Shown here in pieces: positions 22,885 to 62,817 of a stretch of 64,000 bases of DNA. This stretch comes from Lunularia cruciata (taxonomy: Eukaryota; Streptophyta; Marchantiopsida; Lunulariales; Lunulariaceae): NCBI GenBank assembly GCA_948567375.1, contig OX419762.1, positions 54,454,841 through 54,518,840 on the forward strand, in the 5' to 3' direction. Below the pieces are notes generated by a model. It saw only the letters and a list, made by a program, of their open reading frames with translations. It was not told the origin of the DNA and did no database searches. Within the stretch, counting starts at the first letter, position 1; the number at the start of each line of letters is the position of its first letter. A program made the translations under genes and the position numbers.

Positions 22885-25800
22885 TGTGACAACCCGGAAA
22901 ATATCACTTTTGTGATAATCAGGTAAGTAAAGGTTGTTCCTGCAAAGATACAATTCAGAAATGTCCAAATACAAAGTGAAAAGTCACCATGCAGTTCTTC
23001 TTGGTTGCATCTTTAATCTCTCAGGTAGAAACCACATCTAGAAGAGAGTAACAAGCACTGATTTGTAGTCTCATCACAACAATTTGTCACTCTTAATCAC
23101 AACTCCATCAAATCTTTCCAAACAATCTTGATTGTGATGATTCAGGCTCTCCCAAAAATGGCACTTCACTGCAAAATGACTTCACCTCAAAATTGTGTTC
23201 CACCCCTCCACTGAAGGCACAACTTCCTTGATCAAAATTACTTCACATCAACACTACGCTACACTCACAAATGTAGAATACTACCAACACTACAATTCCT
23301 CTTAGATCTATCAAGGCATTGCTCCGTTTGCACTTCTCTCAAGATCAAACACACAAAATGAAGATCAAGGCTGCAGAATCCAACATACAACAAGCACACT
23401 AACTTGCACTTTGAAATTCTCCACACACTCACAGATACAATCACAAAGTTGATACTCAACATCAAGCTCAAGTGACGAGCACTAAAAACAGTACTTTGCT
23501 TTATCTACTCTCAAAAATAATGGGCACTAAACAACATATGATTGCGAATGCTACCTTTAAATAGTGAAGCAATCAACACTACTAACAACTATATAGCTTC
23601 CTAACAACTCTTCCTACCTGCAGATCCAAAATGATAGTGCACCTCTTCATATCTGCCTCTTCAAATCTCAAATCTGTTACTACTCCAATCCAATGACAAT
23701 CTTTTCATGGGCCTTCAATCCCGAAGTAACTTCACACACTACTCTATCCTCAGGTTTCACAACTCCTAATTCCTCTACCAATTCTAACTTTTCTCCTTCC
23801 TGATCTACAATTCCTATCACATGCATGCTTTCTAACTCTCTATCTCCCGACCCACTTTTCTTTGATACCTCCGATGGTAATTTTGAAGACATCTACACTC
23901 CTATGTTATCTACTTCGGGTTTTGCTCTTACATCCTTCCAAAGTTTATCTATCTCTAATTTCACTAAGTCTAATCTAATCGTAATATTGTCTTCTACTTC
24001 CAATATCTTTCTATCTATATGATTTTTGAGACTGATGAGTAAAGCGTTCAAGTCTTTATCCTTTGCACTTATCCTCCTCATCTCTTGCACCAACAACTTC
24101 AAATTGTGCAGTCTCGTCTCTTCAATTTGCATGCTGGCTTTTGTACTTAGCATTGCATTCATCTTTGTCACTATCTCCTTCAATGGCTCCAATCTCATTC
24201 TTCTCTCCCATTCTCAATATGCAAGCCAATCTTCTCTATACATTGCCAATTTTTCTTTGAACTCAGCTTTCATTGTCTCCTTCTCCTTCTCCTTCTCCTT
24301 TTGCACAATCTTCTCTTCAAGATTGCAAAGTAACTCTCTTAATCTTTCTTCCTCTCTATATCTTATTGTCAACTCTCTTTGCCAGAGTTGCTTCTTCTCC
24401 TCTACACTTTCCATCACTCTATCTAGCTCTTGCTCCTTCTCTGTCATTCTTGCCATAACATGGAAATTCTCTAGTATTGAATCAACAAAACTACTGCTTC
24501 AAGATTTCATTCTCCGCTTCTTGTCTTCCTCTTGCTATGACATTTTGCTCTATAATTCTCTCTCTACTCTCCACTTCTCTCTTCAAGTTCTTGATTACTT
24601 GATTCTGCACTATTGCATCTACTTGTAGTACTTCCCTTTCCTCCTCACCTCGGATTATACTCTTATTCAATTCCAAGTTCTCTTCTTCTAATCGAGCTAA
24701 CACCTATAATATAGTCTTCACCTCTAGACACTTTGACTGCATCTCCTTCTTCTTGTGTTCTAACTTCACTAACAACGGGAACACAATCTCCCTCAAATAC
24801 TCTACTCCTTTACTTGTATTTATTTTGACTTGCAGACTTGTCTCCTTCTTCACCTCTTCCTCACTCAACACTTGCCTTTTGAGCCACAGTTGCCTTATAG
24901 GAATGGATTCTTTGCTCCCCAAACTCCCATCCTCCTCTTCTCTTACCTTACTCGGCCCTACTTCATACTTTGCCTTACGTTTGGAACAAACTCCCCTCTA
25001 AATTGTAACTCTCTTCTCCTCTTGCTCTAGAACTTTGTCTTCTAGTTTTGAGTTACCTTTTTCCTCTATCTCCATCTTGGCTTCCTCCTCTTTGGGTATT
25101 GACTTCATCTCCACTCTATCATTTTTGTCACTACTTGTGTCTTCACTCTGTAGCGTGAACTTGGGTTCTTCCTCCTTCTCTGAGTCTTTTGACTTGCACT
25201 CGGCTTCTCCTTCCGACTCTTCTTCCGACAATGCGATTACCCCCAGTTCTTTCCTCAGGTTCACCTTTCTAGCCTTTCTGAGGGTGCGCTTTCTCTTCTT
25301 CTTCTTCTCCTTGTCGACTCCTCTTCTTAGACTTTGGAGTGCTTGCTTCCAATTGCACACTCTACCCCGTCTATGCGTAGTGCTCATCACTACTCCTGAT
25401 CTGAAGATTGTATTGCTGCTCCTCCGCATCAACATCTCTTCTCAAGTCGGGGTGGAAATAGAACACCATCTTGTTTTGCTTCGCCGCATTGAGCAAGTTC
25501 AGCCCCCGATAGAAATGGGCTGCAAACGGCACAATGTAATGTGGAGGCAACTTGTCTCGCAAATTCCACACCATTTGTCTTGTCCTCTAATGAAGACACT
25601 TTGCCCAGTAATTGGCTCTCTTGCAAACATCTCATGGAAGAACACAACTTGGTGCTTCATCACATAAGTCGTTCTTTCCGGCTTCAAGATTGCCATTAAA
25701 GCACTCACGATCTCCCTCTTGATAGGATCCTTATAGCTCTCTACTTTGTAGACATTCTTTGTGCGCTTCAAAGAGAAGGCATCTCTCACTTCTTGGGTTT

Positions 25801-26680
25801 CTTTAGCTACTTCTCACTTCCCCAAGAACGTGGCACCATGCTCTATGCCTGCTTCTCTCCCAATTACTAACCTCCAATCCGACTCTATCCATCGAGCCGG
25901 ATTTCCTCTCTTCCCTTCTTCCTAAGGGCCATCAAGACACTTACTCTTGATGATCTCAGTCATGAAACCTAGAAAGCTAACATTCCAGTTCCATGCCAAG
26001 CATGTGATCCGAAGCTTGCTCAGGATCTCAATTCTTGTGATCACATCTAACCTCCAAATTGCATGATTTCTCATTGCAAATTTAGAGTTCTTCTTCCTAC
26101 CTCCCATCTTTCTCTCTTCCACTTTGGGTTAGGGACTATTCTTCCTACTGATTCCCGGCTTAACTCTCTCAACTTCCTCTCAACACACTAGCACGGCTGC
26201 AACTACACTTCCCTTCCCACGATCTCCTATAAGCCAATCTCTTGACGGCAATGGAAAATTGCTTGTCATTGCTTTGTCTTTAGCCCAAATTTTATAGTGG
26301 CGTGCCTCCTCCATCTTTCTTCACTTTGAGTTTCTATTGAGAAATCATACCTCCTACGTGCTCATGTCATTGTCAATTCTTCTCAAGTGTATGACTGCTG
26401 TTTTTGTGAGTGGTACCTTCTTGAACATCTCACCCCAAAGGAAAGTTGTTACATTGTCCTTCCCTCGGGTTGAGCGCCCCCGGGACAAAGTTTCCTTACT
26501 TTGGTTTTTGGTTGACATGGCAATTCCGAGTACCTTGCCTTTTGACACAAAGTCACTTTACTTTGGGTTACAACCGAGGATACTTTTCTTTGCCTTCTTC
26601 TACTATACAGGCGCAATACGGCTTCTTTTGTACACTTCTTCTTCAAAATTACAAAAAAGAAAAAAAATGTGAGTACCACA
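22885..26680 (-). repeat. Giant 3' LTR of H (3796 bp) carrying an ORF
   Basis: On the minus strand it starts TGTGGTACTCACATTTTT right after the polypurine tract of H and ends CCGGGTTGTCACA. Matching ends delimit the copies at 27189-28857 and 55899-59597, each with its own target duplication, so these really are LTR boundaries. A TATA box (minus strand TATAAAAT, 26289-26296) lies about 390 bp into the LTR. The ORF follows (23680-26122), then about 795 bp of non-coding tail with cttttgattgtgatgattc-type sequence shared by all copies. Confidence 0.85.
23680..26122 (-). pseudogene. LTR-borne ORF in H: conserved N-domain, acidic linker, coiled coil
   Basis: The frame covers about 814 codons and is broken by several stops and shifts. 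N-terminal part: KMGGRKKNSKF, then HAIWRLDVITRIEIL and LAWNWNVSFLGF, ARWIESDWRLVIGREAG, KVESYKDPIKREI, TTYVMKHQVVFFHEMF and FYFHPDLRRDVDAEEQQYNL. The middle is Lys-rich then acidic (EKKKKRKRTLRKARK, then SEEESEGEAE). The C-terminal half is heptad-like and rich in Glu, Lys and Leu (LARLEEENLELNKS, KEQELDRVMESVEEKKQLW), a predicted long coiled coil. The same order recurs in the other copies at 59035-56723 and 62818-64000, the first much diverged, which suggests past selection on the protein. I do not recognise the family; Gag-like or structural roles are possible. Confidence 0.65.
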
Positions 26681-26695
26681 TACCCCCTCCTTCAA
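26681..26695 (-). promoter_or_regulatory. Polypurine tract of H
   Basis: The minus strand reads gaAGGAGGGGGTA directly before the TGTGGTAC start of the LTR. This fixes the orientation of H and identifies 26680 as an LTR boundary. Confidence 0.8.
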
Positions 26696-26782
26696 ATGTG
26701 TGTCCCCACAAACATAGACCTTGGGTGTCTTGGAGACTTCAAAGTCTATGTTCCAATATCTCCAAACTCTCCACCAGTTCAC

Positions 26783-27188
26783 TCAAGTGGCAAATGGTTG
26801 CCCTTCCAAGTTTGCAAGTTGAATGAACCCATTGTCATAAAGATGAAGAACTTGATAAGACCCCATCCATCTCAAATGCAGTTTGCATGGAAAAAATATT
26901 TGGCAATTGTCGTATAACAAAACCAAGTCTCCTTTGCGAACAGTCATAGGCTTGATGTGCTTATTGTGCTTGACTTTCCTCTGCTCTTGTACTTCTTTTG
27001 TGGTTTGCATTGCATTGTCTCTTTTCTCTTCTAACCACATCAGATGATGGATCCAAAGATCCTGGCTTTCTTCCTCCGACAATTGTTCTTCACAAAGAAT
27101 CCAAAATGTTGGTACTTCAAATTCAACTGGTAGTATGGGATGCAAGCCATATGTCAAGAAGTATGGAGTTTGTTTGGTTGTGATCTTT
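26783..27188 (-). pseudogene. Element H: integrase C-terminal part
   Basis: The frame begins right after the solo LTR insertion (ITTKQTPYFLTYGLHPILP, then VEFEVPTFWI) and runs through VRKGDLVLLYDN and LRWMGSYQVLHLY to ANLEGQPFAT before the frame decays ahead of the polypurine tract. It continues the integrase frame interrupted at 28858 (PVALWAY), so the two pieces are one gene. No chromodomain or PHD finger follows. Confidence 0.8.
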
Positions 27189-28857
27189 TGTGACAACCCG
27201 GAAAATATCACTTTTTGCGGTAATCAGGTAAGTAAAGTTTGTTCTCGCAGAGATACGAGTCAAAAATGTCTTAATAAAAAGTCAAACAGTAACATGCAGT
27301 TCTTCTTGGTTGTGTCTTTAATCTCTCAGGTAGAAACCACACCCAGAAGAGAGTAACAAGCACAGATTCACAGTCTTGTCATAAATTAGCACTCCTTAAT
27401 CACAACTCCATCAAATCTTTCCAAACAATCTTGATTGTGATGATTTAGGTTCTCCCAAAAATGGCACTTCATTGTAAAATGACTTTGCCTCAGAATTGTG
27501 TTCCACCCCTCCATTGAAGGCACAACTTCCTTGATCAAAATTGCTTCACATCAACTTTGCACTACACTCACAAATGCAGAATACTACCAACACTACAATT
27601 CCTCTCAGATCTGTCAAGGCATTGCTTTGATTGCACTTCACTCAGGATCAAACACACGGAATGAAGATCAAGGCTACGGAATCCAACATCCAACAAACAC
27701 TCTAACTTGCAAATGTGCTGCAAACGGCACAATGTAATGTGGAGGCAACTTATCCCACAAATTCCACACTATCTGCCTCATTTGCCCATAGAAGCACCTT
27801 GCCTAATTGATTGGCTCTCCTGCAAACATCTTATGGAAGAACACCGCTTGTTATTTCATCACATAAGTTGTTCTCTCCGGCTTCAAGATTGCCATAAGAG
27901 TACTCACAATCTCTCTCTTGACCGGATCCTTGTAACTCTCTACTTTGTACCCATTCTTTGTCCGCTTTGAAGAGAATGCATCCCTTACTTCTTAGGTTTC
28001 TTCGACTACCTCCCCCTTCCCCAAGAACATGGCACCCTACTCTGCACCTGCCTCTCTTCTGAGTACTAATCTCCAATCCAACTCTGTCCAATGAGCCGGA
28101 TTTCCTCTGTTCCCCTCTTCCTTGGGGCCATCAAGACATTTACTCTCAATTATCTTGGTCATGAATCTTGGAAAACTAACATTCCAGTTCTACGCCAAGA
28201 ATGTGATCCAAAGTCGGCTCAAGACTTTGATCCTTGCGATCACATCTAACCTCCAAATTGCATGATTTCTCACTGTGAATTCAGAGTTCTTCTTTCCTCC
28301 TCCCATCTTTCTTTCTTCCTCATTGTCTCTCGGGTTAGCTCTCTCAAATTCTCCTCTACACACTAGTGCGTCTTCAACTCTACTTCCCTTCCCATGATCT
28401 CTTGTAGGACGACTCCTCAACGGCAAAGGAAAATTTCTTGACATTACTTCGTCGTTAGCCCAATTTTTATAGAGTTGCGCCTTCTTTGTCTCCCTTCAAT
28501 TTGAGTTTCTATTGAGAAATCACACCTCTTGCAAGCGCCTGTCATTGTCAAGTGTACTTCACGCATATGACTGCCAGTTTTTGAACTGTCCCTTCTTGAA
28601 TTTCTTGCCCTGAAGAAAAGTTGTTATATTGTCCTCGCCTCGGGTTGAGCATCCCCAGATACAAAGACTTCTTACTTCGGGTTGTATGCTGACAGGGTAA
28701 GTTCGAGTACTTTGCCTTATGACCCAAAGCCACGTTACCTCGGGTTTCATCCCAAAGACTCTTTTCTTTGCCTTCTTTGGCCATACAGGCGCAATCCGAC
28801 TTCTCTACACACTTCTTCTTCTCCATTTAAAAAAAAACAAAAAATGTAGGTACCACA
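27189..28857 (-). repeat. Solo giant-family LTR with internal deletion, inserted in H
   Basis: This is 1669 bp with the family ends (TGTGGTACC start and GGGTTGTCACA end on the minus strand) and a perfect 5-bp target duplication tcttt (27184-27188 and 28858-28862). Relative to the 3.8-kb copy it lacks the middle: near 27710 the 3' tail joins directly to ORF sequence equivalent to 25517. A TATA-type motif is visible near 28465 (aatttttatag on the plus strand). Confidence 0.9.
27720..28444 (-). pseudogene. Remnant of the LTR-borne ORF in the solo LTR
   Basis: The start is well kept (MSRNFPLPLRSRPTRDHGKGS, KMGGGKKNSEFTVRNHAIWRLDVIARIKVL). The later N-domain is present but frameshifted (the KVESYKD, TTYVMK and LPPHY regions can be followed). 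The acidic and coiled-coil parts are deleted. It is clearly non-functional. Confidence 0.6.
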
Positions 28858-29822
28858 TCTTTTCTATTGTTCAATATGCCCATAATGCAACTGGTAACTT
28901 TGTATCCCAATCATAGGCATAATTGACAGTCACCTTATTCAGAATTCTACAAAGTAGCCTATTTGCCTTTTCCATTAAGCCATTCGCTTTTGGATTATAA
29001 GGGGTCATCTTCCAATGCTTAATCTGAAAGTATTTTGTTAATACATCCATCAAAAATTTCAAGAAATGTAATTTCAAGAAATGTGTCCCATGGTCACTGA
29101 CCAATTCTAGAGGACATCCGTATCGGGAGATGATGTTTCAAAAGAGAAATTCCACCACTATTTTTCCATCATCTCTACGAGTTGCTTCAGCTTCAACCAT
29201 CTTGGTAGCAGAGTGAATGCAAACCAAAATGTAGCATTTTCTCATGACTCGGGTTACCGGTTGTATTAGTCCCACAAAATCAATTCCCCATTTCTCAAAC
29301 AGGACCAAGGGTAAAATTGGTCTCAAAGGCCATTGAGAATTAGCCGTCGGCTTTCCTGTTCTCTGACAAGCGTCACAGCTTTGAATATGGGCATGCTTGT
29401 CTTTGTACATCGTAGGCCACCAGTACCCCAAAGAAAGAATCTTCTTTACCATATTCTTTAGAGCATAGTGTCCTCCCGATGCTTTGGAATGTAAAGACTC
29501 AATTATGCCTCCAACTTTGTATGACTCCAAGCACCACCAAAGTACTTTGTCTTTGCCCATCTTAAATAAAATGCTGTGTTTTAGTTGATACGGCCCAATT
29601 TTCCTAAGAAAGACTGCCCTTTGCTCCGGATCCAGCCCTTCAGGACACTAGAGAGTATGCAAATAATGATATTTGGCTGCATACCTCATACTTTACATTG
29701 TTATTAATTGATATAACTCTTCATCAGGGAACCAATTGTTGATTTTACATTCCTGGTCTTGAGTTTCTAACCTGGATAGGAAGTCCGCATTTGAATGCGA
29801 AGCTCCCTTCCTTACAAAATTA
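28858..29822 (-). pseudogene. Element H: RNase H end and integrase core
   Basis: It starts in the RNase H tail (KGASHSNADFLSRLE), then the integrase zinc site (HSKASGGHYALKNM with CDACQRTGK). The DDE core shows WGIDFVG for the first Asp, SDHGTHF for the second, and NGLMEKANRLL, where the Glu is kept. Stops and shifts break it, for example between EFLF and the SDHG segment. It ends at LPVALWAY where the solo LTR is inserted. RT, protease and gag are missing upstream. Confidence 0.82.
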
Positions 29823-29899
29823 CATACAGGTGCAATACAACTTCTCTTGTACACTTCTTCTTCAAAATAAAAATAAAAAACAAAAATGTGGGTACCACA
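29823..29899 (-). repeat. Stub of the H 5' LTR
   Basis: 77 bp match the start of the giant LTR (minus strand TGTGGTACCCACATTTTT ... cttgtac ... gcacctgta). It then changes abruptly to RNase H coding sequence, marking the internal deletion. Confidence 0.75.
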
Positions 29900-30980
29900 A
29901 CATCACTCTCTAAAAGATCTCTGCCCTATGAGAACATACGCTCATCCATACATTTGGGTCATCCAAGTCCAAAACTACTGTAGTATCTTGATGAATGGCT
30001 GTAGGTAAATCTAGATCTTATCCATAGAGTAGGAAGTAAGGAGAGAAGGATGCTAAGGAGGCTTGCCAGCTGGATCAATAGCCCATGGCCAACCAAGGTA
30101 ATTGGAGATCCCAATCTCCCAAGTGGCCTCTCTGCAAACCATACTTTTGCAATCTTCTCTTCACCGTCTAAACCACTCTCTCTGCTAAGCTATCTGCCTT
30201 AGGGCAATCTTGAGATGTAGTACAATGATCAATCAAAGCCTTGTCACACAAGACCTGCAACTCCCCCAAGAACTCTATTCCTTGATCAGTCAAAACCTCA
30301 ACTGGTGCACCAAAATGATTAAGAATTCAATCCAAGAATGAGTAAGCTGTCCCTTCACTAGACTTGTCAAGAAGTGCAACCAACTCAATCCACTTGGAGA
30401 AGTGCTCCACCATCACCAAGATGATGATGTCTCACAGTCAGCGATAAAGGTCCAGCAAATTCCAAACTCCAACGGTAACCCAATCCCATGATAGGTAATG
30501 GGTGTAATTGTGGCGTAGGAGCATTGAATGATGCTCTAATTTGATCACAAACCACCCAGCTGGCAACAAATTGCTGTACCTCGGTCTGCATACCATGTCA
30601 CCAATAATGAATCTAGAGTAAGCTATACGTATGCTTTGCTCCAAAATGTACTAGCTCCTCATGAGCATGATAGACCAATTGTGGTCTTTGAGATGGAAGT
30701 GGTACTACTCGCACTCTACCATCCTCCCATACACGCAAAAGGTGCCTACCTTCCAATCTGAACCATTTGGCTCATTGAAGAACACAATCTCTCTCCTTGG
30801 CTCCAATTGTGCCACCCACAACACCAATGCAAAGATAGTACATCACTAAGACATCATGATGAATGTCTTGCTGAACTGTACCAATATCTTCACTCTTTGG
30901 ATCTATGACCTCAATAACTCCTCTTGTATGCGCTGAGAGAGATACCACCAAAGCCTTAGAAACTATTCATAGAAAGGCCG
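29900..30980 (-). pseudogene. Element I: integrase
   Basis: Degenerate integrase frame. The zinc-site region reads LVYHAHEELVHFGAKHT, followed by VASWVVCDQIRASF, so the first Cys is lost. The core begins YRWSLEFAGPLSL, where the first catalytic Asp is Glu. Later segments AERVV and LQLPWLAMGY can be followed in shifting frames to VCSHRAEIF at 29900, where H interrupts. The frame resumes in phase-compatible form at 22884. Confidence 0.7.
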
Positions 30981-31149
30981 ATGCATGCCAACCTGGCACC
31001 ATCTCCTCATCTGTCTCACCATGCCAATGTGCTATGGTCTGATCCTATTGGCTGGGACATGGGCTTCTACTCAACCCATTTGTATCACGGTTCACCACTC
31101 CAGGTCTGTGAACAACCATGGAATCATACTCCTATAAAATCAGAGCCCA

Positions 31150-32365
31150 TCATGCAAGCTTCCTTGAAAGCTTGTCAGACTCCATCAACTTCTTCAACGG
31201 CTGATGATCAATGATGAGAATGAAGGGGTTACCAAATAGGTAACATTGGAAATGTGCTATTGCCCAAATTGTTGCCAAGCACTCTCCCTCATATGAACTA
31301 TACTTCACCTCCGCTGAATTGTTGGAGCAACTAGCATAGGCCACCACAAACTCCTTCCCCTCATCATCATGCTGGGTGAGCACCGCTCCAAACCCCAATA
31401 TACTCCAATCAATATGAACCTGAAATGGTCATCCTCTGATCGGTCTCCTCAAAATAGGAGCAAATGTCAACCTTTCCTTGAGCTCTACAAAAGCTCTCTC
31501 CTGCTCATCTCCCCAACACCACTCCTGTGTTAGCTTGGTCAGTTTCGTCAAGGCCTTGGCAATAGCACTAAATCCTCTAACATAGCGGTGATAAAAATTT
31601 GCCAACCTAAGGAATGCTCACACTCTGCTCACATCCGTAGGCCAAGGAATACATGCAATAGCCTCCACCTTGGTCTGCTGAACACCAAGTCCTCCGGGGG
31701 AGATAGTATGACCCAAATACTTAACCTGCTCATGGAAGAACCTACACTTCCTAGGATGTAATTTGAGTCCATGAGATCTCAACCTCTCAAACACCTCTAA
31801 CAACTGTCTCTCATGCTCCTCCATAGTAGTGCTATAGACCAAAATGTCATCAATATAACACCAAGTAAAATCCAATCCAACTAGGACCCTATCTATGACC
31901 CTTTAGAACTCAGCATGAGCATTCTTTAACCCAAACGGTAAGAAACTCCACTGATATAACACATCCTTGCCATGAGGATCAATAGCTTAGAATGCTGTCT
32001 TGGACTTATCCTCCTCCTTGATTAGCAATTGATGATATCCTGCTCAAAGATCCAAAGTACTGAAGACCTTTGCATGCCCAATCGCATCAAAAATCTCCTC
32101 CGGTGTAAGCATGGCATACCAATCAGCCTTGGTCTGTCGGTTGATAGGATGGTAATCTCCACACATTTGCCTATCCATGTAGTTTCCATGCATATCCTTC
32201 TTAATTGGCATCACTATTGTTGATGCATACTCTCCATGCGAGATCTCCACCAAACCAACCTCAAAAAAGTCACTACTCCGACTCTGGTTCATTGTCCTCT
32301 CCACATCACTCTATTGATAAGGACGTTGGAAAACTGGTGTATCGCTAGTCAGCTCAATCTATATA
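31150..32365 (-). pseudogene. Element I: reverse transcriptase and RNase H
   Basis: RT pieces in order: GLVEISHGEYASTIVMPIKKD, CGDYHPINRQTKAD, AKVFSTLDL, FLPFGLKNAHAEF, then the catalytic box YIDD (31846-31857, WCYIDDILVYS) and VKYLGHTISPGG. RNase H follows with LGFGAVLTQHDDEG, YSSYEGECLATIWA and IIDHQPLKKLM. Several stops and a few shifts interrupt it. The YIDD box differs from the FIDD of the A family and shows that I is a different lineage. Confidence 0.82.
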
Positions 32366-32859
32366 CTAGCTCCCTTTAGAGCACTCAAATCCTTCATATT
32401 GAAGGCAAAACAACTCGTGTGGTTCCTCAAGAACCTCCAAGAACCCTCCGTCTTTCCTCTCTAGTAAGCTTGGGTCCAAGATTTGGCTCCCAAGTATCCT
32501 CTGTAATTGTAGTAGGAGTGGAAGATGTACTGACTTGCTACTACATTGGGCCCTTAGGAGCAATAGTGTCATGCCTCTGACCACTAGAGGTCCCAACCTC
32601 TGTGTGAAAAACTCCCTCCACTCTGGCTGCAAGCTCCACACGTCCTCTAGTTGCATCCCAAGTGGACCAAGGGTGTAATCCAAGTAGCCCACGCTCACCT
32701 GGATGGACTCCAAGTAGACCACTCTCCCTAGTAGCTACTGGCTGCGTCCCAAGAATACCATGTCCACTTGGTCCATCGCCCCTAGCATGTGCCTGAATTG
32801 TCTTGATAGGCACATGGCTCACAAGTGTCTAAGTGGTGATGCCTATCAAGCGCATCCTA

Positions 32860-33850
32860 CATTGCTCTGCCAAGCCAAGGCTCATAATCTAGGTTAAAAA
32901 AATTCAAGTCCATAGCCTGACCTAACACCTAATGCTTGGATGCCTTTGACACCAATAGAACAGCGGTAATACCAATCTATTGCCTTCTCTCTCTCATCGG
33001 CATTGGGCTCCACCAACTACTGTAACTGTGAGTCTCAAACAAGTCCAAGTCCTTCCTCTCAAAAAGCATGAGAGCCTGGGAAACTCATGAGTGTGGGAAA
33101 TGCGGCTCTAGACTATCCAACTAGGTTCACCACTACCATAGGTGACCTATCAGCCACTACCATTGTCTAAGACTGACGCCCAACATCCAAGATATCATCA
33201 ACAAGGATGTGGTCAAGTCATTGAATCCCATCATAAGTATGCTATAGGACCTCTTTAGGTAAGAGGTTTGTCCACCAAAGACGAAGACAATGAGCCCGTG
33301 ATCCCACTTTGGTTGCATCCAACAATATAGTAGGTCCCATCCAAGAATGGACCTGATGTGTACTTGCCACCACTCTGGTGCAAGAATCACCCATCAAAGG
33401 AACATTCTCCAAAAGGTAAGTTGGAGAAACAGATTGATGAACCTGGAGATGTCATAGTATTTGTAACATCTCCCAAAACAACCAAAACAAGGATTCTGAA
33501 GACCCAAACCTTGGCCAGCACATGTATGTCCTTGACATGGCCATTAAAAAATCACCAAGTAAATAGGCCCATGTCTCTCCAGATCATGCGCCCCCAATAA
33601 GGAAATGTCTACTAGTAGGGCCTTCTAGTAACCTCTGATTGTTGATATTGGTTATAACTCTGGATACCGATAGGCCAAGTATGCCACATGATGTAGAGAA
33701 ACTCGCCTATCAATCTCATCTCTCTCTACATACAAATACCTTTGTACTCGTATACCCACTTATAATACTGTAGCTAGTCTAGTGCTAATCCCACCAAACA
33801 ACTCCAATAGACATATCCCCTCCATTGGATACTGCCAAGCAATGAGTGTG
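32860..33850 (-). pseudogene. Element I: DNMT3-like cytosine-5 DNA methyltransferase domain
   Basis: About 330 codons between protease and RT. Motifs in order: I, LLELFGGIST (33781-33840, SAM binding); a YLYVE segment; IV, WPCQGHTCAG with the catalytic PCQ at 33532-33540; FWEMLQIL; VI, YLLENVPL with ENV at 33401-33409; VIII-like, GSRAHCLRLWWTNLL near 33280; then VEPNADERE near 33010 and SLGLAEQ. The order and the SxAHxxR..W.NL form resemble DNMT3-type enzymes, which add methyl groups to cytosine in DNA. Motif I to PCQ is in one phase with stops (after VL, PEL, RGY and VIF). A frameshift near 33480 precedes ENV. The domain is collinear with the polyprotein, so it belongs to the element. Retrotransposon-encoded methyltransferases are known from charophyte algae and dinoflagellates, as I recall. 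This copy is dead. Confidence 0.85.
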
Positions 33851-33959
33851 GTATCCAGGGGTGTCAAAGTAATCAACTCTAGAGGCTCATCCTCACACTC
33901 ATCTCCTGATTGTATGAAGGCTCTACTCCAAGCCTATTGCACCAATTGATATGCATGTT

Positions 33960-35016
33960 GCTACAATGCCTCCTCTGAACTCCACAATGGAATATCCAAG
34001 GTGGATGGAACAATCCCACTCATACTCCAAATCTGAGTGATCTCCTTTGGTATTGGAGTATTCTCTACATGGGCGTTCTCCTCCAACAAGTCACCAAGCC
34101 AAGTAACTGCACCATTGAAAGCTAAAATTGATGGTGCCATGGTCTTGGATTGTAGTGAGCCAAGACTACAACTACTAAAGCATACTGGCAAGCAACATAC
34201 CCATCCCTCAGCAGACTGCCAACCTGGTCTATAAGAAGCTGTCTCCTCCCAATAATCATTACTGAAACCCATGAGGTATAACACTGCTCCCACAACTAGC
34301 ACATCATATGACTCAACTATTGTTGCAATAGCCTGAGCTCTCACCACCGAGCTATCAATCGGATGACCAGGCTGAACCTAGACAACAAGCTCCCCATGTG
34401 TGACATACTGTGTCAAACTAACACCTAGAGATGTCTGGATCTGAAATAGACACCTCTCTACATTGGTCTTCTGTAACTCCAAACCAACTACTATAGCCTT
34501 CTCTAACATAAGGGGTTGCGCACCAGAGTCTAACAAGACTTTTTGTGGTGTATAGACCTTCCCTAAAGGTCCCACCAAGTAGAAAATCCCCCTTTGGTTA
34601 TCCAATAGGACAACACCAAGTGTGAACCGCGCTCTCTCAAAGGCTGGTCTAGCTAGCAACTCCTCCACTCTAGTCGTTGTTGCCTGCCATAAACCATTGG
34701 TCATTGAATGGATCCCATGCTCCTCAACCAAGTCAGCTCCACTACCAACCACCTCTACTCTAGTAGTAGGAACCACATCATCTTTACTCTCATAAAGCAT
34801 GGCAGTTAACCGGAACACTAGAGCTAGGTCAACTCCCAATGTAAACATGTCATTGGTTGAAAATAAAGGGCATCGTATAATCAGCTGAGCCGCCCCCAAC
34901 ATTGTGCTAGACTCAGTCTGTGTAGTAGCAGGTGGCTGACTAGCAAGTAGTTGATCATGCACTCTATCACCACCTACCACACTTGCATTGGGACATCTAG
35001 GAGCCATGGATGTCAT
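33960..35016 (-). pseudogene. Element I: aspartic protease region
   Basis: An intact run of 212 codons (35016-34378) includes RFTLGVVLLDNQRGIFYLVG and the protease active site VLLDSGAQPL (DSG at 34522-34530). After a TAG the same domain continues (HPIDSSVVRAQAIATIVESY, VLVVGAVLYLMGF, WEETASYRPGW) to 33960, leading into the methyltransferase. The D-S-G triplet is intact. This protease would process the polyprotein. Its position directly ahead of the methyltransferase is unusual for Ty3/gypsy. Confidence 0.75.
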
Positions 35017-35399
35017 CTACAATGCCTCATGAAAGACTGCATGAAAGACTAGGGAACTCTGACTTGTCTCCCAACCTCTCCTCTTATGGGTCCAACTCCA
35101 TTAATGCTCCTCTAGGCTCTAGAGCACGTACTGCACTCCTAGTCATTGTTGTAGATGCATCCACCTGTGCCACTCCACACATGAAATCCAAAGCATCTCT
35201 ATCACCAACATATGAGATGGAAGCCTCAACACTCAAATCTGATCTCCTCTTAGCAATGGCCATACTAGCCAATCTTTGTTCCAACTACTCAATCGGAGTA
35301 GCCATAGCTGTATCAGAAGTAAGGGCAGGTACTACACCTCTACTAGGTGTAGATCCTCTACTACGACCTCAACCACCTCATCCTCCATGAACTAAAGCT

Positions 35400-36071
35400 C
35401 CTCTACTACTTGCTATAGCAGCCCTTCCACTCTGTAACTCTGGGTGTAGGTCACAACATTGGTCACTAGTGTGACCAAATCTGTGGCAATGCTCACACTA
35501 CCTTTGTGATGGATGTGATGTACCAAAGGTATTAAGTCCGCTGCCTTGCGTACACTCTCTTCTATGGTGAGGTCCACCACAAGTCCAACAAGCAACACCA
35601 CTACTCATTGGTTGCTGCTGATCCAAAAATGAAGGTAAGGGTCTAGCTCCACTAGGCCCTCCACTCGCTCCATAAGATTTGGGCTATCCACCCTGTCCTC
35701 AAAAACCAAGTGGGCGTGGTGCACTTTGGTGCACTCTAGAAGAAGTCACAACCGTGGATGAGGTCTCCCTACCAAATCCAGATGTCACCACTCTCTCCTC
35801 CACCATGTTGAGCTCAATATGCTCAGCCAAACCAAAGACCACTGCCAAAGTAGGCAAAGTAGCCTATAACAACATAACATCACAAACTCTACATTGCAAC
35901 TCCCTATCCAATATCCCATACCAAAACTAGACTGCATGAGCCTTAGTAACTCCCTTAGTGAAACTGATCAGCCACCTCATGCAAGTGTATGCCTTGTGTA
36001 GGCTCTCTCCAACCTTCCATTGGAACTCCTGCAAGCTCCCTAGCTTGTCAATCCGCACTCCTTGGTAGTTC
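35400..36071 (-). pseudogene. Element I: Gag C-terminal half with two zinc knuckles
   Basis: It starts YQGVRIDKLGSLQEFQWKV at the C insertion boundary, continues GESLHKAYTCMRWLISF and FWYGILDRELQCRV (Gag core pattern), then a low-complexity linker. It ends with two CCHC-like knuckles: CWTCGGPHHRREC and, after about 20 residues and a stop, CEHCHRFGHTSDQC. These would bind RNA. Frameshifts and stops are present. Confidence 0.75.
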
Positions 36072-36762
36072 TGTAACACCCATTTGTGCATGTGTGTGGT
36101 ATTGTGATATTTAGCTTGGTATTACAAGAACTTGAGAGATATTATTTATATAGAGATAAATGATGGTACTACATTAGTCATGATTAGCTAGATTTAGTCA
36201 TAGGTAATATAGAGGGAACCTTACTTTAGAGTAGGTGGAAAAGATGAGCACCACTATTTTGGATTCTAATGTGTTGACGGTATTATTCATAAGTGTTTGG
36301 CTTTGAGGAAAGAGTTGAGAACTCTTGGGCCCGCAAGGCTTTTTGTTTTAGATTCTTCTTTAGTCCAAGGATAGCCCATGTGAAGGAATCCTTGACTTAG
36401 AAGTTGGGTCAAGATAAGATCACATGCTTAGGAGAATATGCCCATGTGAATAGATATTCCTTTCTACTTTTTGACTTTACTTGAATTTTAGCCTAGTAAC
36501 TTGAGTTACTCCAGTAATTAGTTAATTTGGTATGTAATTATTTCACAAGTATATAAACAAGGGGTGAGGAGGTACTCATCATCCTTTCATTTGCATCTAA
36601 CTCTCTCTCATTGAGTTCTCTAGTGAGCAATGTCTTGAGTCTTGGAGTGTTAGCCTTGGAGGAGTATGATGGAGTTGGGGGTTTCTTGCCTTCTTAGTCC
36701 ATGGTGCGCTCCCATAATAGCCATCAGAGGTTCATTATGAGTGAGAGACAGGCCGGCTCACA
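36072..36762 (+). repeat. 5' LTR of element C
   Basis: 691 bp, TGTAACACCCATTTG to GGCCGGCTCACA. It keeps the 9-bp catttgtgc near its start that the C 3' LTR lacks. The TATA box is tatataaa in acaagtatataaacaagg near 36548. Confidence 0.9.
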
Positions 36763-36766
36763 TTTT

Positions 36767-36783
36767 TGGTTCCGTTGCCGGGA
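36767..36783 (+). promoter_or_regulatory. Primer-binding site of C, tRNA-Glu type
   Basis: tggttccgttgccggga lies four bases after the LTR end and is identical to the A site. The C leader follows to 37448, where B is inserted. Confidence 0.8.
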
Positions 36784-37448
36784 CCTCTCTAGAAGGCAAG
36801 ATGATATTCCGTGTTCAATTCTACATTAGGTAGAAGGAGGCTATGAGAGCTCACTTGGAGAGAACATTAGGAGAGGAGAGGGCTGAACTTATGTTAGAGA
36901 ACAAAGATCTATTTGTATACACTATAGTTCATGATGATGTCTTTGAAGTGATTTTGTACATCTTGTACACATGAGAGGATTTGGAGAGATTGTGTGAGGT
37001 GGATTGCAGATTTTGGGGATTAAGGTGATTTTGGGCAAAATCTCAAGTTTAAAATCTGAACTTGAAATTTCTACACATGATAGCTTGGGTTATCTTCAGT
37101 TAGCACAGTTGGAATTATTGTGAGAGCTATTATGAGCATTTGGTTAGAATTTTTGAAAGTTGATAGGGTAAACTGCTCTGCAACTGCATGCTCTGTAGAA
37201 AATTGTACAAAGTCTTCCATTTCTTTAAATTTAAGTGGATTATTGTGAAACTTTTCAAGAAAATTGAGTATGTTATAATCCAACTTCTGACTCAAAAATT
37301 AGACGTAGATAATTCTTGAGCAAGAAGTTATGAGTTTTTGAAGTGAGGGGGGTGGTTTTCAGACCAAATCTGAAATATGTGTGCTGAATAGAAAGGTGTG
37401 TAGGCCAAATGGCTTGATGAAAAGATCTGAAATTTTGCAGGGAGGGAC

Positions 37449-38118
37449 TGTGAGCCGGCCTGTCTCTCACTCAGGATGAACCTCTAATGGCTATTATGGT
37501 AGCGCACCATGGACTAAGAAGGCAAGGAACCCCAACTCCATCATACTCCTCCAAGGCTAACACTCCAAGACTCAAGACATTGCTCACTAGAGAACTCAAT
37601 GAGAGAGAGATAGTTGCAAATGAAAGGATGATGAGTACCTCCTCACCCCTTGTTTATATACTTGTGAAATAGTTACGTACCAAAGTTACTAATTACCGTA
37701 GTAACTCAAGTTACTAGACTAAAAGTCAAGTAAAGTCAAAAAGTAGAAAGGAATATCCATTCACATGGGCATATTCCCCTTATCTTGACCCAACCACTAA
37801 AGCAAGGATTCCTTCACATGGGCTATCCTTGGACTAAAGAAGAATCCAAAACAAAAAGGCTTGCGGGCCCAAGAGTTCTCAACTCTTTCCCCAAAGCCAA
37901 ACACCTAGGAATAATACCAAGTCAACACACTAAAATCCAAAATAGTGGTGCTCATCTTTTCTACTTCCTCTAAAGTAAGGTCCCATCTATCTTAGCTATG
38001 ACTAACTTTAGCTAACCATGATTAATATAGAACCATCCTTTATCTCTATATAAATAATATCTCTTAAGTACTTGTAATACCAAGCTAAATATCACAATAC
38101 CACACACATGGTGTTACA
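37449..38118 (-). repeat. 3' LTR of element B
   Basis: 670 bp. Next to the polypurine tract it lacks 9 bp (catttgtgc in element orientation) that the B 5' LTR still has. The C 3' LTR lacks the same 9 bp. Confidence 0.9.
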
Positions 38119-38166
38119 TTTACCCCCGGACTAAGTTTTCACTTTGTCCTCAAAGTGAAGGTCTCT

Positions 38167-41100
38167 CTACCTTCTATGGTACATCTTCAACTTATCATGG
38201 TTAATCCTATCAAAGTGTCTTCCTCCCAACTCCTTGAGATCATAGGTGTAATTGCCCCACACCTTCTCTACTATAAAAGGTCCAAAGTACTTAGGCAAAA
38301 ACTTCTTTTGCACTCTCTTGAATCGAATGGAATCAAACAACATTACCCAATCACCTTCTTTGAAAGGCTCCACCTTCTTCTTGCCTTGCCTCTTGTCATA
38401 GCTCTCCTTTTGTTTCCTTTGGGCTTGCTCCACTCGAACCATAGCAACTGCTCTTGCCTCTTCCAACTCCATGAGTTGATCCTTCCTTGACTTCTTTGCA
38501 TCACCTCCTTGTGCTTTCTTCAATCTCCTATGAATGCTTTGGAAGGTAGGAAGATCAAAGTGAATAGGTAAGGTAGACTCAATACCATACACCAATTGAA
38601 ATGGAGAATATCCAGTGGAAGTTTTCATGGTTGTCCTATACTCCCACAAAACTGCATGAATCCTCTTGTCCCAATGATGTTTAGCCCCCTCCATTTCTGC
38701 ATCTTTGGCCAACATCATGCACAAGGTCTGATTGGTTCTCTCTGCCAAGCCATTGGAATTTGGCTTATAGGATGTAGTTACTCTATGTGTGATAGAGAAA
38801 TGTCGTAGCATGGCTGTAGTAATGCTTCCTGTAAACTCTCCTCCTCTATCAGAAACCAACTCCAAAGGGCATCCAAATCTAGTGATAATGCGTTCATAAA
38901 GAAATCTACCCACTTCATCTTCATTCTTGTCCCTCAATGGTCTAGCCTCAACCCACTTGGTAAGGTAATCAGTAACTACCACAATGTACCGATTGTTCCT
39001 TGGGGTTCTATTGAGAGGACCTACAAAATCAATTCCCCACTTCTCAAAAGGTCCTAGCAATGGAATTGATCTAAGTGGTGGAGTGGATGTAGACTTTCTA
39101 GCAAAAGCTTGACAAACATGACAAGTTTTGCAATAATCAAGACAATCCTTGAAAATCCCTCTCCAATGGTAACCTGCATCTAGAATCTTGAAAGCAGTCA
39201 CCTTTCCTGCAAAGTGTCCTCCACATACTAAACCTTCATGAAACTCCTTTATGAGTAGGATAGACTCTTCCTTACCCACTGCTCTTCGAAGTAGACCATC
39301 TGCTCCTTGGTGAAAAAGAATATCCTCCACCATTGTGTAAGGTCTAGATCTTGCTGCAAGGGCCTTCCTCTCCCTAGCATGCATCCCTTCTGGATAGTTA
39401 CCTTTTGTCACAAAATCCACAATCTCCTTGTACTCCATTGGAACCTCTTGAGTGACTGAGATTGTCATGAGCTCCTCATCCGGGAAGGAATCATCCACTG
39501 GCTCATCTCCATCATGATCATAGGCTTTAGATAATAAATCAGCATTTGCATGTTTCTTTCCTGGCCTATCTTCAATGGTGTAGTCATACTCAGACAAGAG
39601 TATCATCCACCTTGCTAGTCTCCCTTCAACATTAGGCTTGTTGAAGATGTACTTCAAAGCCTTGTGATCCGTGACAATGGTGGCTTTCCCTCCAATCAAG
39701 TAGTGTCTAAACTTCTTGAGACCAAAGATCACTGCCAACCCTTCTCTCTCCGTGACAGAGTAGTTCTTCTCTGCTGAAACCATCTACCTACTAGCATAAG
39801 CTATTGGATGATCATGCCCATCATGGTCTAATTGACTAAGAGTGCATCCTATAGCTTCATTAGAAGCATCAGTGTAGAGGATGAAAGGTTTACTCCAATC
39901 AGGTTTAGCAAGAATTGGAGCTACAACAAGGGATTGCTTGAGCTCCTCAAAAGCTTTGAGAGCCTCCTTGTCTTCCAAAATCACCATGTAATCTACACCC
40001 TTCTTCATGTAGATGGTCAATGCATAAGCCTTGTTGGAAAATGAGAAGATGAACCTCCTATAGTACCCAACCATCTCCAAGAATTGGCGTAACTTTGTCA
40101 AGCTTGAAGGGAATGGAAGGTCTGAGATTTTCCTCACCTTCTCAGGATCAACTGCTATTCCATCCTTGGAGATGATATGCCCCAAAAGTAGACCTTCTTC
40201 ACATCCAAAAATGCACTTCTCTGGGTTGAGTGATGCATTTGCCTCATCCAAGCGTTGCAAGACTTTGATTAGGTGCTCAAAGTGCTCCTCCTTGCTCCCA
40301 TAGACACAAAAGTCATCAATGAAATCTCTCACAAATTTCCCAATGAAAGGTTCAAATACCTTGTTCATGAACCGTTGGAATGTGGCTGGAGCATTGCAAA
40401 GCCCAAAAGGCATGACCTTGAAAGCGTAAGTTCCCCAAGGTGTGGTGAATGTGGTGAGTTGTTGATGCTCTGGTGCAATCTTGATTTGGTTATATCCACT
40501 ATAACCATCTCCAAAACTGTACCTCTCATGACCTGCAACCTCCTCCAAGATCTCATCAATGAATGGCAATGGGTAGTAGTCCTTCTTAGTAACAACATTA
40601 AGCTTCTTGTAATCCACACATACCCGAAGCTTGCCATTCTTTTTCTTCACAATGACAATTGGAGACACCCATTCTGAATTCTCCACCTCAAAGATAAATC
40701 TAGCTTCCTTGAGCTTATCAATCTCCTCCTTCACAACCAAAGATATTGGTGGGCTAATGCGACGTTGCTTTTGGCGGATTGGTCTTGCATGTGACTCCAC
40801 CTCTATCTTGTGCTCCTCCAAGGTGACTTCCTTCAAATCCTTGTAACTAAAAGCAAACACATGGATGAACTTGCGGAAAATCTCCTCAAATCTCACCTTC
40901 TCCTCCTTGGTAACATTTGGGCCATACATGAGGGTAGATAACCTTCTCTCTACCTCCTCAAGTGTCAATGGTGATTTATCTGGGTCCTTCAAAACCTCTG
41001 GCTTAGGTGCAAAATCCATAGCACACAAAGGATACACATCTGAATCAGATTTAGATTCATCCTCCTCCGTGGAAGTCTCCTCTTCCATGCTTGTGTCCAC

Positions 41101-42659: not shown

Positions 42660-42892
42660 CTTAACCCCTCACTATCTTTCTTTTCTCTCAATTATTTTTT
42701 TCTTTTTTTTTCTCTCACGCTATTACTAATAGAGTATATACATGACTAACACCATCTGAGAATAATACACTCTAGGGAACACAAAAGGTTCAAGTTGCTC
42801 CAAGATTTCTATAGCAACATCAAATCCTAGAGTGCATATTAAATTAACTCTCATGGATAGTTTATCCATAAGTTGAAAGATTATCTCCATCA

Positions 42893-43366
42893 CTAATCTT
42901 GAGAACTAGCTGATGAAGGTGGTAGTATTTTTGTAGCTGTACTAAGACTCTCTCCAAGATCCTTCACCAAAGTTTCCAAAAGTGCTTTTACTCCACTACA
43001 CTCATGTCCTTTTGGAAGTCCTTCAACTCCACAAACCTCACACAACTCCTTGGTCTTAGATCTTCTCCCTCCCAATCTTGGTGAAGAAGGTCCAACATGC
43101 AAACCCAAGTCAAGTAAGCCTCTCCTTTCCCTCAATCTCTTGCTCTCAAAGGTCAATGGACATGAACTTGCCTTATGTCCCTTCTCTCCACATAGAAAGC
43201 ACTTAGACTCACTCTTTCCTCCAAGTGGTGTAGGTTTTTGGATCCTCTCAACACTCTCTTCAAATTCTATTGTAAACTCTCTTTTCCTCAAATCCACCCC
43301 TACAATCACCTCAAACCCTTGGGGAAGCTTGCATAATCTCAATTTCCACTCTTGATGACCCTCCAT
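42893..43366 (-). CDS. ORF0 of element B, intact
   Basis: 157 residues from the MEGHQEWKLRL start, nearly identical to A (differences include Val/Leu near KLPQGF and Glu/Lys near the C-terminus). Both Cys/His clusters are kept. It stays open although gag-pol beside it is broken, but the element is too young for this to show selection. Confidence 0.75.
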   Translation of the reverse strand: MEGHQEWKLRLCKLPQGFEVIVGVDLRKREFTIEFEESVERIQKPTPLGGKSESKCFLCGEKGHKASSCPLTFESKRLRERRGLLDLGLHVGPSSPRLGGRRSKTKELCEVCGVEGLPKGHECSGVKALLETLVKDLGESLSTATKILPPSSASSQD

Positions 43367-44903: not shown

Positions 44904-45076
44904 GGACACCCTGGAGTTGTGATCACGTGTGAAAATTTCAGAGGACTGCCACATACTGGTTGAGAGATCTGAGTGAAATTGTGAGGAAGGGTCAATTCTG
45001 CAGAGTGGAGATCTCATGCATGAGGAGTTTGAGAGCAACAAAAGCATGTTTGAGTGTTTAGATTCATCTTGGGAAC

Positions 45077-45563: not shown

Positions 45564-45796
45564 ATGGGAGATAATATTTCTACTTATATATAAACTATCC
45601 ATGAGAGTTAGTTTAATATGCACTCTAGGATTTGATGTTGCTATAGAAATCTTGGAGCAACTTGAACCTTTAGTGTTCCCTAGGGTGGATTATTATCAAA
45701 TGGTGTTAGTCATGTACATACTCTATTAGTTCTAGAGTGAGAGAAAAGAAAAGAAAAAGAAAAATTGAGAGAAAAGAAAGATAGTGAGGGGTTAAG

Positions 45797-50098: not shown

Positions 50099-50133
50099 AG
50101 AGACCTTCACTTTGAGGACAAAGTGAAAACTTA

Positions 50134-50146
50134 GTCCGGGGGTAAA
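50134..50146 (+). promoter_or_regulatory. Polypurine tract of element C
   Basis: gtccgggggtaaa lies directly before the 3' LTR, identical to A and B. Confidence 0.85.
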
Positions 50147-62798: not shown

Positions 62799-62817
62799 TT
62801 GGGCTAGAGACAAAGCA

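What the first reader, a model, noticed from the sequence alone, without database searches (positions are those of the whole stretch)
32860..33850. DNMT3-like DNA methyltransferase built into a plant Ty3/gypsy polyprotein
Seen: the minus strand between protease and RT of element I carries SAM-binding ELFGGIST, catalytic PCQ (33532-33540), ENV (33401-33409) and a SRAHxxRLWWTNLL block, in the order and spacing of cytosine-5 methyltransferases. The last block resembles the DNMT3 form. Known, from memory: retrotransposons with captured methyltransferases have been described in charophyte algae and dinoflagellates. Inference: this is a related or further capture in a land plant, perhaps letting the element methylate its own DNA or alter host silencing.
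Basis: partly seen in the sequence, partly recalled or inferred. Interest (0 to 1): 0.95.

Follow-up and report, generated by a model that had tools for sequence, protein, structure and literature searches.

The report
Jumping gene carrying a DNA methyltransferase
A land-plant genome holds many copies of a retrotransposon whose own protein includes a DNMT3-like DNA-methylating enzyme, and related elements turn up in liverworts, a moss and green algae, which suggests an old partnership between a jumping gene and the kind of enzyme that normally silences jumping genes.

Summary
The minus strand at 33822-32889 encodes a decayed DNMT3-like cytosine methyltransferase between protease and RT of a Ty3/gypsy element; a profile built from other species finds it there only (E 5.8e-58 and 5.5e-36, two frames). 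At least 150 copies were scored in this genome; 20 of 20 fetched copies chosen by RT carry the domain. Layout: gag-protease-DNMT, an in-frame TAG in UAG-CAR-YYA context, then RT-RNaseH-integrase-PHD finger, with split repeats A...B-A-B and 4-bp target duplications in 5 of 6 copies. Relatives occur in Marchantia, Calypogeia, Sphagnum, Closterium, Tetraselmis, Monoraphidium and environmental DNA. RT places Klebsormidium elements in the same clade, so one old capture with later relocation is favoured, but AU tests do not settle it. Catalytic residues are nearly invariant and widely shared differences show purifying selection. Closest known: KnitGypsy-Dnmt3 (PMC5890265). Eight literature searches on this question listed no report from land plants that I recognised. 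What the enzyme does is inferred: methylation of the element's own cDNA is most likely.

The parts
50825..51442 (-). 5' part of the element (upstream part of gag), split off by nested insertions
   Evidence: blastn with copy L049, 89.6% over 618 bases
36073..50824 (.). nested insertions of other gypsy elements that interrupt the gag region (not part of the element)
   Evidence: gap between the two matching stretches; repeats and ORFs of another gypsy family inside
29901..36072 (-). main body of the decayed element: gag, protease, DNMT, RT, RNase H, integrase
   Evidence: blastn with L049, 89.9% over 6188 bases
34003..34875 (-). protease region (limits by arithmetic from the ORF1 match), DSGA near 34533-34522
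   Evidence: tblastn with ORF1 of L043, reading
32889..33822 (-). DNMT3-like cytosine-5 methyltransferase domain, broken by stops and frameshifts
   Evidence: profile of relatives, tblastn; motifs read
32541..32543 (-). TAG stop between the gag-protease-DNMT and RT-INT-PHD reading frames (context altered here: TAG TAG CAA GTC)
   Evidence: TAG in 35 of 36 distinct sister copies whose junction was found
31639..32229 (-). reverse transcriptase (limits by arithmetic)
   Evidence: tblastn with ORF2 of L043, domains by Pfam in L043 and local profiles
31120..31515 (-). RNase H (limits by arithmetic)
29994..30705 (-). integrase, H2C2 and rve core (limits by arithmetic)
22879..29900 (.). nested insertion that cuts the element after the integrase (not part of the element)
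   Evidence: gap between matching stretches
22417..22878 (-). end of ORF2 beyond the integrase core
22420..22560 (-). PHD finger (first Cys replaced in this copy)
   Evidence: tblastn, translation; Pfam PF00628 39.1 bits in L043
22144..22246 (-). repeat B1, downstream of ORF2

Best explanation
The window holds a dead copy of a high-copy Ty3/gypsy-type element of the KnitGypsy-Dnmt3 kind. SHOWN: a DNMT3-like methyltransferase is a regular part of the element, on the Gag side of a conserved UAG; RT, RNase H, integrase and a PHD finger follow; the ends are split repeats with TG..CA termini and 4-bp target duplications; catalytic residues are conserved and changes are under constraint. INFERRED: most ribosomes stop at the UAG and make Gag-protease-DNMT in bulk, while readthrough makes a minority product with RT and integrase, so the particle is rich in DNMT. 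During or after reverse transcription the DNMT methylates the element's own cDNA, so that it arrives pre-methylated. The PHD finger on the integrase reads a histone tail and steers or restrains insertion. The likely gain is protection of cDNA or quiet arrival in a host that would silence the copy anyway, in exchange for later reactivation. Likelihoods: identity about 0.97; one old capture inherited within one gypsy clade about 0.65; readthrough about 0.8; cDNA methylation as the main role about 0.45. The confidence below is for the whole.
For: Profile and homologue hits. PDB ranking for the Calypogeia relative: DNMT3A/3B/3C fill the first 29 of 52 rows (best 8.4e-11), then plant enzymes (4onj/4onq, which I recall as tobacco DRM, and DRM2), then bacterial enzymes and DNMT2. 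The retro-DNMT profile scores human DNMT3A 93, own host DNMT3 77, 12 phage enzymes 42-66, own DRM fragment 31, own CMT fragment 7 bits. Catalytic Cys in 77 of 78 rows with a residue there, ENV Glu 81 of 81, motif VIII Arg 79 of 81 and 80 of 80. DNMT is 73% identical to Marchantia, against protease 55%, gag 64%, RT 79%. N:S of differences from L043: 117:52 in single copies, 17:19 in differences shared by 6 or more of 40 copies, p=0.0195; without CG/CHG transitions 95:46 against 5:13, p=0.0016. TAG in 35 of 36 distinct junctions found, CAR YYA in 36 of 36 (three duplicate loci removed by hand), and TAG CAA TCA in L080, whose DNMT is 51% identical. RT clade of 99 rows at 99* that holds the 48 DNMT-bearing rows of that tree and three Klebsormidium rows. 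Split repeats and target duplications. For the activity: the PMC5890265 abstract reports de novo CG methylation by retrotransposon DNMTs.
Against: No activity, expression or methylation data here. In 28 of 79 rows Glu stands for the Pro of PCQ: 18 of 37 type B and 10 of 42 type A rows, unusual for a C5 enzyme; the own, Marchantia P0001 and most type A sequences keep Pro. AU tests do not reject A or B lineages grouping with host DNMT3/DRM on their own (p 0.068 and 0.139). In the careful tree type A as a group has only 48/81 support. The tree is rooted by assumption on phage enzymes and HhaI and has few DNMT3 references. No Klebsormidium DNMT protein was recovered, so that link rests on RT and on a figure legend. 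Twelve copies of the family have CpG o/e 0.41-0.46, above two other gypsy copies of the window (0.11-0.12), which does not point to heavy self-inflicted CG methylation over time; but only one other family was compared. The constraint test is not significant for the short RT piece used as a control (p 0.098, and 0.58 without CG/CHG transitions).
Confidence: 0.6

Rival explanations
1. Separate captures: the bryophyte-type elements, the Klebsormidium elements and the type B elements each took a DNMT3 independently, in the spirit of the independent acquisition that PMC5890265 proposed for Klebsormidium.
For: Two positions of the DNMT in the polyprotein; AU tests do not exclude A or B grouping with DNMT3/DRM (p 0.068, 0.139); many clade members show no DNMT in the same protein (51 of 99 rows).
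Against: 81 retro-DNMTs are parted from two host DNMT3s by a branch at 100*, and A and B split once (SH-aLRT 91) in the quick DNMT tree; the careful tree puts 23 retro-DNMTs in one clade (97/97); the RT tree puts its 48 DNMT-bearing rows in one clade (99*), B nearly one clade within it; the PHD finger is shared by both types.
Confidence: 0.25
2. The DNMT acts on RNA, on an RNA:DNA hybrid, or as a nucleic-acid-binding part of the particle, and DNA methylation is not its point.
For: Position on the Gag side of the stop implies structural-protein amounts (inference). Pro to Glu in motif IV of 28 of 79 relatives. PMC5890265 (discussion read) raises RNA methylation for SymbioLINE.
Against: Closest to DNMT3, a DNA methyltransferase family, and far from DNMT2 in the PDB ranking; catalytic Cys and ENV Glu kept in nearly all rows.
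Confidence: 0.2
3. The DNMT works in trans on the host or on rival elements, altering silencing rather than marking the element's own cDNA.
For: Many copies (at least 150 scored) could supply much enzyme; the PHD finger gives a chromatin link.
Against: The enzyme is fused to Gag and protease, so it is expected in particles (inference); copies decay at CG and CHG sites as targets of methylation would (0.26 and 0.245 per site against 0.11 for CHH), though which enzyme does that is unknown. Host effects were not testable.
Confidence: 0.15
4. A passenger: a DNMT sequence caught by chance in one copy or one dying subfamily.
For: The window copy itself is dead.
Against: 20 of 20 RT-chosen copies carry it; 73% identical to the Marchantia and Calypogeia elements; purifying selection.
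Confidence: 0.02

Closest known systems
KnitGypsy-Dnmt3 of Klebsormidium nitens (de Mendoza et al. 2018, PMC5890265; first part of the text, passages with figure legends, and discussion read)
   Same: Gypsy domains with a DNMT3 in the polyprotein; intact motifs; purifying selection; repeats laid out like DIRS (A-coding-B-A-B) according to the figure legends; RTs of three K. nitens proteins fall in the same clade.
   Different: Host is a land plant with at least 150 copies; UAG readthrough layout with DNMT on the Gag side, PHD finger on the integrase, 4-bp target duplications and wide distribution are not in the passages I read. The position of the DNMT in KnitGypsy is shown in a figure that is not held.
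SymbioDIRS-Dnmt3 of Symbiodinium (same paper)
   Same: DNMT3-type domain in a retrotransposon polyprotein; two domain orders coexist; A..B-A-B repeats.
   Different: Integrates by a tyrosine recombinase; ours has a DDE (rve) integrase and target duplications.
Host plant DNMT3 and DRM (PMC6453930 and PMC12344493, passages read)
   Same: Same C5 methyltransferase motifs; own genome carries both.
   Different: The element's domain is a separate branch; DRM is rearranged, the element's is not; Pfam shows no companion domain of host DNMT3s in ORF1 of L043.
Chromodomain gypsy elements (PMC3350952, seen in a search listing with its abstract only)
   Same: A chromatin-reader type module at the end of the polyprotein.
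   Different: PHD finger in place of a chromodomain; DNMT added.

Membership tests
Ty3/gypsy LTR retrotransposon | RT-RNase H-integrase order with gypsy-type domains | tested here: met
   Pfam on L043 ORF2: RVT_1, RNase H, H2C2, rve in that order
Ty3/gypsy LTR retrotransposon | two identical complete LTRs, one at each end | tested here: not met
   5' end has A only, 3' end B1-A2-B2 in 5 of 6 copies examined; so it is gypsy by proteins, not by classic LTR layout
Ty3/gypsy LTR retrotransposon | integrase-type target-site duplication | tested here: met
   4 bp in 5 of 6 copies examined; in the sixth, L045, no B2 follows A2 in the fetched stretch and the end was not found
DNMT3 family | C5 motifs I, IV, VI, VIII, X in unrearranged order | tested here: met
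   counts over 81 rows; but Pro of PCQ only 46 of 79
DNMT3 family | closer to DNMT3 than to other C5 classes | tested here: met
   in the tree it is beside DNMT3+DRM and not nested inside, with the root assumed; AU tests leave A+phage open (p 0.145)
DNMT3 family | de novo DNA methylation activity | not testable with these tools
   needs enzyme assay
KnitGypsy-Dnmt3 | gypsy element with DNMT3-like domain in its polyprotein | tested here: met
KnitGypsy-Dnmt3 | A-coding-B-A-B repeats | tested here: met
   (5 of 6 copies) against the legends
KnitGypsy-Dnmt3 | sequence clade with the K. nitens elements | tested here: inconclusive
   RT of P0094, P0149, P0163 lies in the clade; no K. nitens DNMT sequence was recovered
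SymbioDIRS-Dnmt3 | tyrosine recombinase | tested here: not met
   rve integrase in ORF2 and no tyrosine recombinase family among the Pfam hits of the two ORFs of L043
TMV-type stop readthrough | UAG CAR YYA context (motif recalled) | tested here: met
   36 of 36 distinct junctions CAR YYA, 35 of 36 TAG; L080 TAG CAA TCA; the window copy itself has lost it
TMV-type stop readthrough | readthrough in cells | not testable with these tools
   needs a reporter or ribosome profiling

The most novel reading that the evidence does not exclude
One capture of a DNMT3-like enzyme, before or near the split of chlorophyte and streptophyte green plants, founded a gypsy lineage that unites a DNA-methylation writer with a histone reader (PHD) and has kept both through green algae, liverworts and moss. 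In one branch, which includes the window's family, the writer was put under Gag-level expression by a UAG readthrough stop, so that each particle pre-methylates its own cDNA before insertion. The captures in green plants would then be one.
Probability: 0.35. Interest if true: 0.88.

Novelty: new variant of a known kind. Interest (0 to 1): 0.74.

Why it matters
Transposons are normally the targets of DNA methyltransferases. A widespread and recently multiplied lineage that carries such an enzyme as its own makes it testable whether self-methylation helps a transposon. It extends a case reported from one charophyte alga to land plants, including the model liverwort Marchantia polymorpha, where genetics is possible, and it questions whether the Klebsormidium case was an independent capture. 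The readthrough layout makes a clear prediction about dosage, and the PHD finger about insertion sites. It also warns annotators: 'DNMT3' counts in bryophyte genomes may include transposon proteins.

Tried and rejected
Pfam on raw window frames: no hits, because the copy is too broken; solved through relatives. Chance insertion of a host DNMT: rejected. Bacterial or phage origin: the phage C5 enzymes share the AGWPCQG..DPRSG block, but the profile scores human DNMT3A higher and over its whole length; AU test A+phage p 0.145, B+phage 0.031, so a phage-side origin is not formally closed. Viral-contig scans for relatives: P0020 nothing, A4 no relative, A3 gave 28 loci; 12 of these (L052-L063) went into the tree and the profile test and look like ordinary phage enzymes, the other 16 were not studied. 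Genome contigs: one locus, L080, in a cyanobacterial MAG, read as a eukaryotic contaminant. Copy counting by DNA pattern did not complete. The AU test of host DNMT3 with type A did not finish. CpG comparison: one comparison family only. First N/S count contained three duplicate loci and was replaced; the first C-to-T count contained duplicates and the window copy and was replaced (little change). A first wording that the Pro-to-Glu change belongs to type B was wrong and is mended. A first attempt at the motif script on phage loci stopped with an error after printing 12 of them.

Full report
OBSERVATION. The minus strand of the region was read in three frames. In raw form the copy is too broken for Pfam; against PDB sequences the N-half gives only DNMT3A/3C, 15 of 15 rows, weakly, and the C-half nothing relevant. 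With relatives the case is clear: 14 of 14 proteins found by the N-half and the stretch before it are Marchantia polymorpha, E down to 8.5e-55, 12 of 14 annotated with PF00145. A profile of 80 relatives without sequences of this genome finds only this place in the window's six frames at E 1 or better.

ELEMENT IN THE WINDOW. Copy L049 of the same genome maps the element: 51442-50825, 36072-29901 and 22878-22152, all minus, about 90% identical, with a further short match to 22144. The gaps are filled by other elements that nested into it. The PHD finger therefore lies at 22560-22420, far from the DNMT. The far 5' end was not found in the window.

FAMILY IN THE GENOME. The genome (565.8 Mb, 74 contigs) has a miR166 match over Rfam's threshold (62.4 against 60 bits), which marks a land plant (distribution of miR166 recalled). 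150 places were scored with the window's DNMT N-half, 149 of them 79-83% identical to it at protein level (the window copy is the diverged one), from 9972 first-look candidates (a lower bound). 44 copies were scored by ORF2 of copy L043; the other 43 are 97-98% identical. By eye 9 of the 44 lie beside a DNMT match of the capped lists; of the other 35 I fetched the upstream stretch of 20, and 20 of 20 carry the DNMT. Of 40 distinct copies 14 have a DNMT stretch without stop or indel, 23 have an in-frame stop.

ANATOMY. Twelve 9-10 kb stretches show ORF1 (gag with zinc knuckles, protease, DNMT) and ORF2 (RT, RNase H, integrase, PHD), parted by one TAG in frame in 12 of 12 (in several copies the frames are broken elsewhere; Pfam was run on L043 and a piece of L042 only). 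An anchor before the stop found 39 junctions among the loci at hand, three of them duplicates of the same copies; of 36 distinct ones 35 have TAG (one TTG) and 36 of 36 are followed by CAR YYA. Copies with an altered anchor were not seen. The window copy reads TAG TAG CAA GTC. L080, a contig filed under a cyanobacterial MAG, carries a relative (DNMT 51%, RT 68%, PHD 63% identical) with the same two ORFs in one frame and TAG CAA TCA. UAG-CAR-YYA is the tobacco-mosaic-type readthrough context (recalled). The DNMT is thus on the Gag side of the stop. In other type A relatives DNMT and RT share one open frame (e.g. P0098, P0106), so the stop is not a feature of the whole clade.

ENDS. Repeat A (449 bp in L049) stands at the 5' end without B; B1 (about 110 bp, 125 in L049), 2 bp, A2 and B2 follow ORF2. 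Six copies were examined with their 3' ends: the B1/A2 junction has 2 bp in 6 of 6; B2 was found in 5 of 6 (not in L045, where no B follows A2 in the fetched stretch). L048, seen only in part, has a shortened A followed by B. The ends are TGTCA...GACA, and the flanks repeat 4 bp in the 5 copies with B2 (CCTA, CATA, CCTA, GACA, GCTA). A1 and A2 are 96.5-98.9% identical within the six copies. This is the DIRS-like A-coding-B-A-B layout that the legends in PMC5890265 state for SymbioDIRS and, in Fig. 4, for the K. nitens elements. With a DDE integrase it is odd; the B1-A2 join looks like a ready-made junction of the two ends that would let reverse transcription rebuild both (inference).

RELATIVES. 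The DNMT of Marchantia P0001 finds 63 proteins among 8000 scored candidates: 15 Marchantia, one each of Calypogeia fissa, Sphagnum fallax, Monoraphidium neglectum and a Spirochaetia MAG (read as contamination), and 44 without an organism's name. The RT-RNase H search gave 3988 hits of which 120 were listed, with Klebsormidium nitens (3), Closterium, Chara, entries labelled Tetstr1 (read by me as Tetraselmis striata), and DNMT-less elements of plants and animals. Local profiles found a DNMT in 95 of the 180 proteins; of the 117 first seen by RT in 32. Two orders exist: A, DNMT before RT; B, DNMT between RNase H and integrase. A protein without DNMT may be ORF2 alone, so absence is not shown. 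A PHD hit was found in 84 of 182 entries, 70 of them with the canonical spacing.

TREES. DNMT, quick tree (81 retro rows of at least 250 residues, 15 shorter ones left out, and two host DNMT3s): a branch at 100* parts retro from host, A (44) and B (37) split once, support 91. Careful tree of 40 rows (a chosen 23 of the 81): retro-DNMTs one clade 97/97; within it B 96/91, A only 48/81; DNMT3 and DRM 99/98; phage enzymes and HhaI on the other side 100/98, root placed there by assumption. AU tests: A with DNMT3/DRM p 0.068, B with DNMT3/DRM 0.139, A with phage 0.145, B with phage 0.031; so one origin is favoured but not forced. RT tree, quick (107 rows with a single complete RT and RNase H, plus a few added by hand): a 99-row clade at 99* holds all 48 DNMT-bearing rows of that tree and 51 in which no DNMT was seen, three Klebsormidium rows included; the 8 rows outside show no DNMT; B forms a 33-row clade at 99* with three rows in which no DNMT was seen. 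Other DNMT-bearing entries (e.g. P0079, P0101) were not in the RT tree. Horizontal transfer among algae and bryophytes could also explain the spread.

CONSTRAINT. Motif counts over 81 rows (rows with a residue there): Cys 77 of 78, ENV Glu 81 of 81, Asn 79 of 81, motif VIII Arg 79 of 81 and 80 of 80; Pro of PCQ 46 of 79 with Glu in 28, the Glu in 18 of 37 type B and 10 of 42 type A rows. DNMT identity to Marchantia and Calypogeia is 73%, between RT (79-80%) and protease (55-56%; in Calypogeia only 110 residues aligned). Among 40 copies, differences from L043 that occur in one copy are 117 N, 52 S, 19 stops; in two to five copies 66, 45, 12; in six or more copies 17, 19, 2 (single against six or more p 0.0195); without CG and CHG transitions 95:46:13 against 5:13:0 (p 0.0016). 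Gag-protease behaves alike (36 copies, p 0.0003 and 0.0007); the short RT piece is not significant (37 copies, p 0.098 and 0.58). Single-copy C-to-T changes run at 0.26 (CG), 0.245 (CHG) and 0.11 (CHH) per site in 41 copies, as expected if inserted copies are methylated at CG and CHG.

WHAT IT IS LIKE. By sequence the domain is DNMT3-like: PDB ranking, profile scores. It is not the host DNMT3, whose catalytic region is found in two exon stretches in this genome, nor DRM nor CMT.

MECHANISM. Shown: a regular, constrained domain with conserved catalytic residues, encoded with Gag and protease. Inferred: high dosage in particles through a readthrough stop; methylation of the element's own cDNA; a histone-guided integrase. 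PMC5890265 (abstract, passages and discussion read) reports de novo CG methylation by retrotransposon DNMTs and suggests cDNA methylation. Rivals are RNA or hybrid substrates, a trans effect on the host, and separate captures.

LITERATURE. Ten searches were made: eight on DNMTs in retrotransposons or in bryophytes, one on readthrough (88) and one on PHD fingers in gypsy elements (91). Passages were read in PMC5890265, PMC12344493, PMC6453930, PMC10952607, PMC5784723, PMC9516144, PMC8566409 and PMC8616336. None of the passages that I read describes a DNMT-bearing retrotransposon in a land plant; PMC12344493 mentions DNMT3 in LTR (it says Copia) and DIRS elements of streptophytes and dinoflagellates, citing the 2018 paper. 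Most subscription journals are missing from the library, and supplements were not searched.

Noticed in passing
relatives of both types, e.g. P0171 (B), P0079 (A): Motif IV reads GWECQ instead of PCQ in 28 of 79 rows (18 type B, 10 type A), while Cys, ENV and motif VIII stay. A Glu in place of the near-invariant Pro of C5 methyltransferases may mean another substrate or an altered mechanism.
   Followed up: partly
L039-L042, L049 with L081-L086: DIRS-like split repeats in an element with a DDE integrase and 4-bp target duplications; how it is reverse transcribed is unexplained.
   Followed up: partly
window 10460-15295: Another gypsy element with a 1611-aa frame still open but CpG o/e only 0.11, far below twelve copies of the DNMT family (0.41-0.46).
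   Followed up: no
window 25086-26680, 58254-59008, 62406-63997: Repeated stretches with open frames (NGYKVESY..) of unknown kind, 67-80% alike.
   Followed up: no
L080 (CADCWO010000201.1); P0063: Eukaryotic retroelement sequence filed under bacterial MAGs (cyanobacterium, Spirochaetia), probably contamination.
   Followed up: partly
Marchantia proteins P0001-P0014: Transposon polyproteins stand as hypothetical proteins, one also under a 'DNA (cytosine-5' name, in databases, which may inflate DNMT counts in Marchantia.
   Followed up: no
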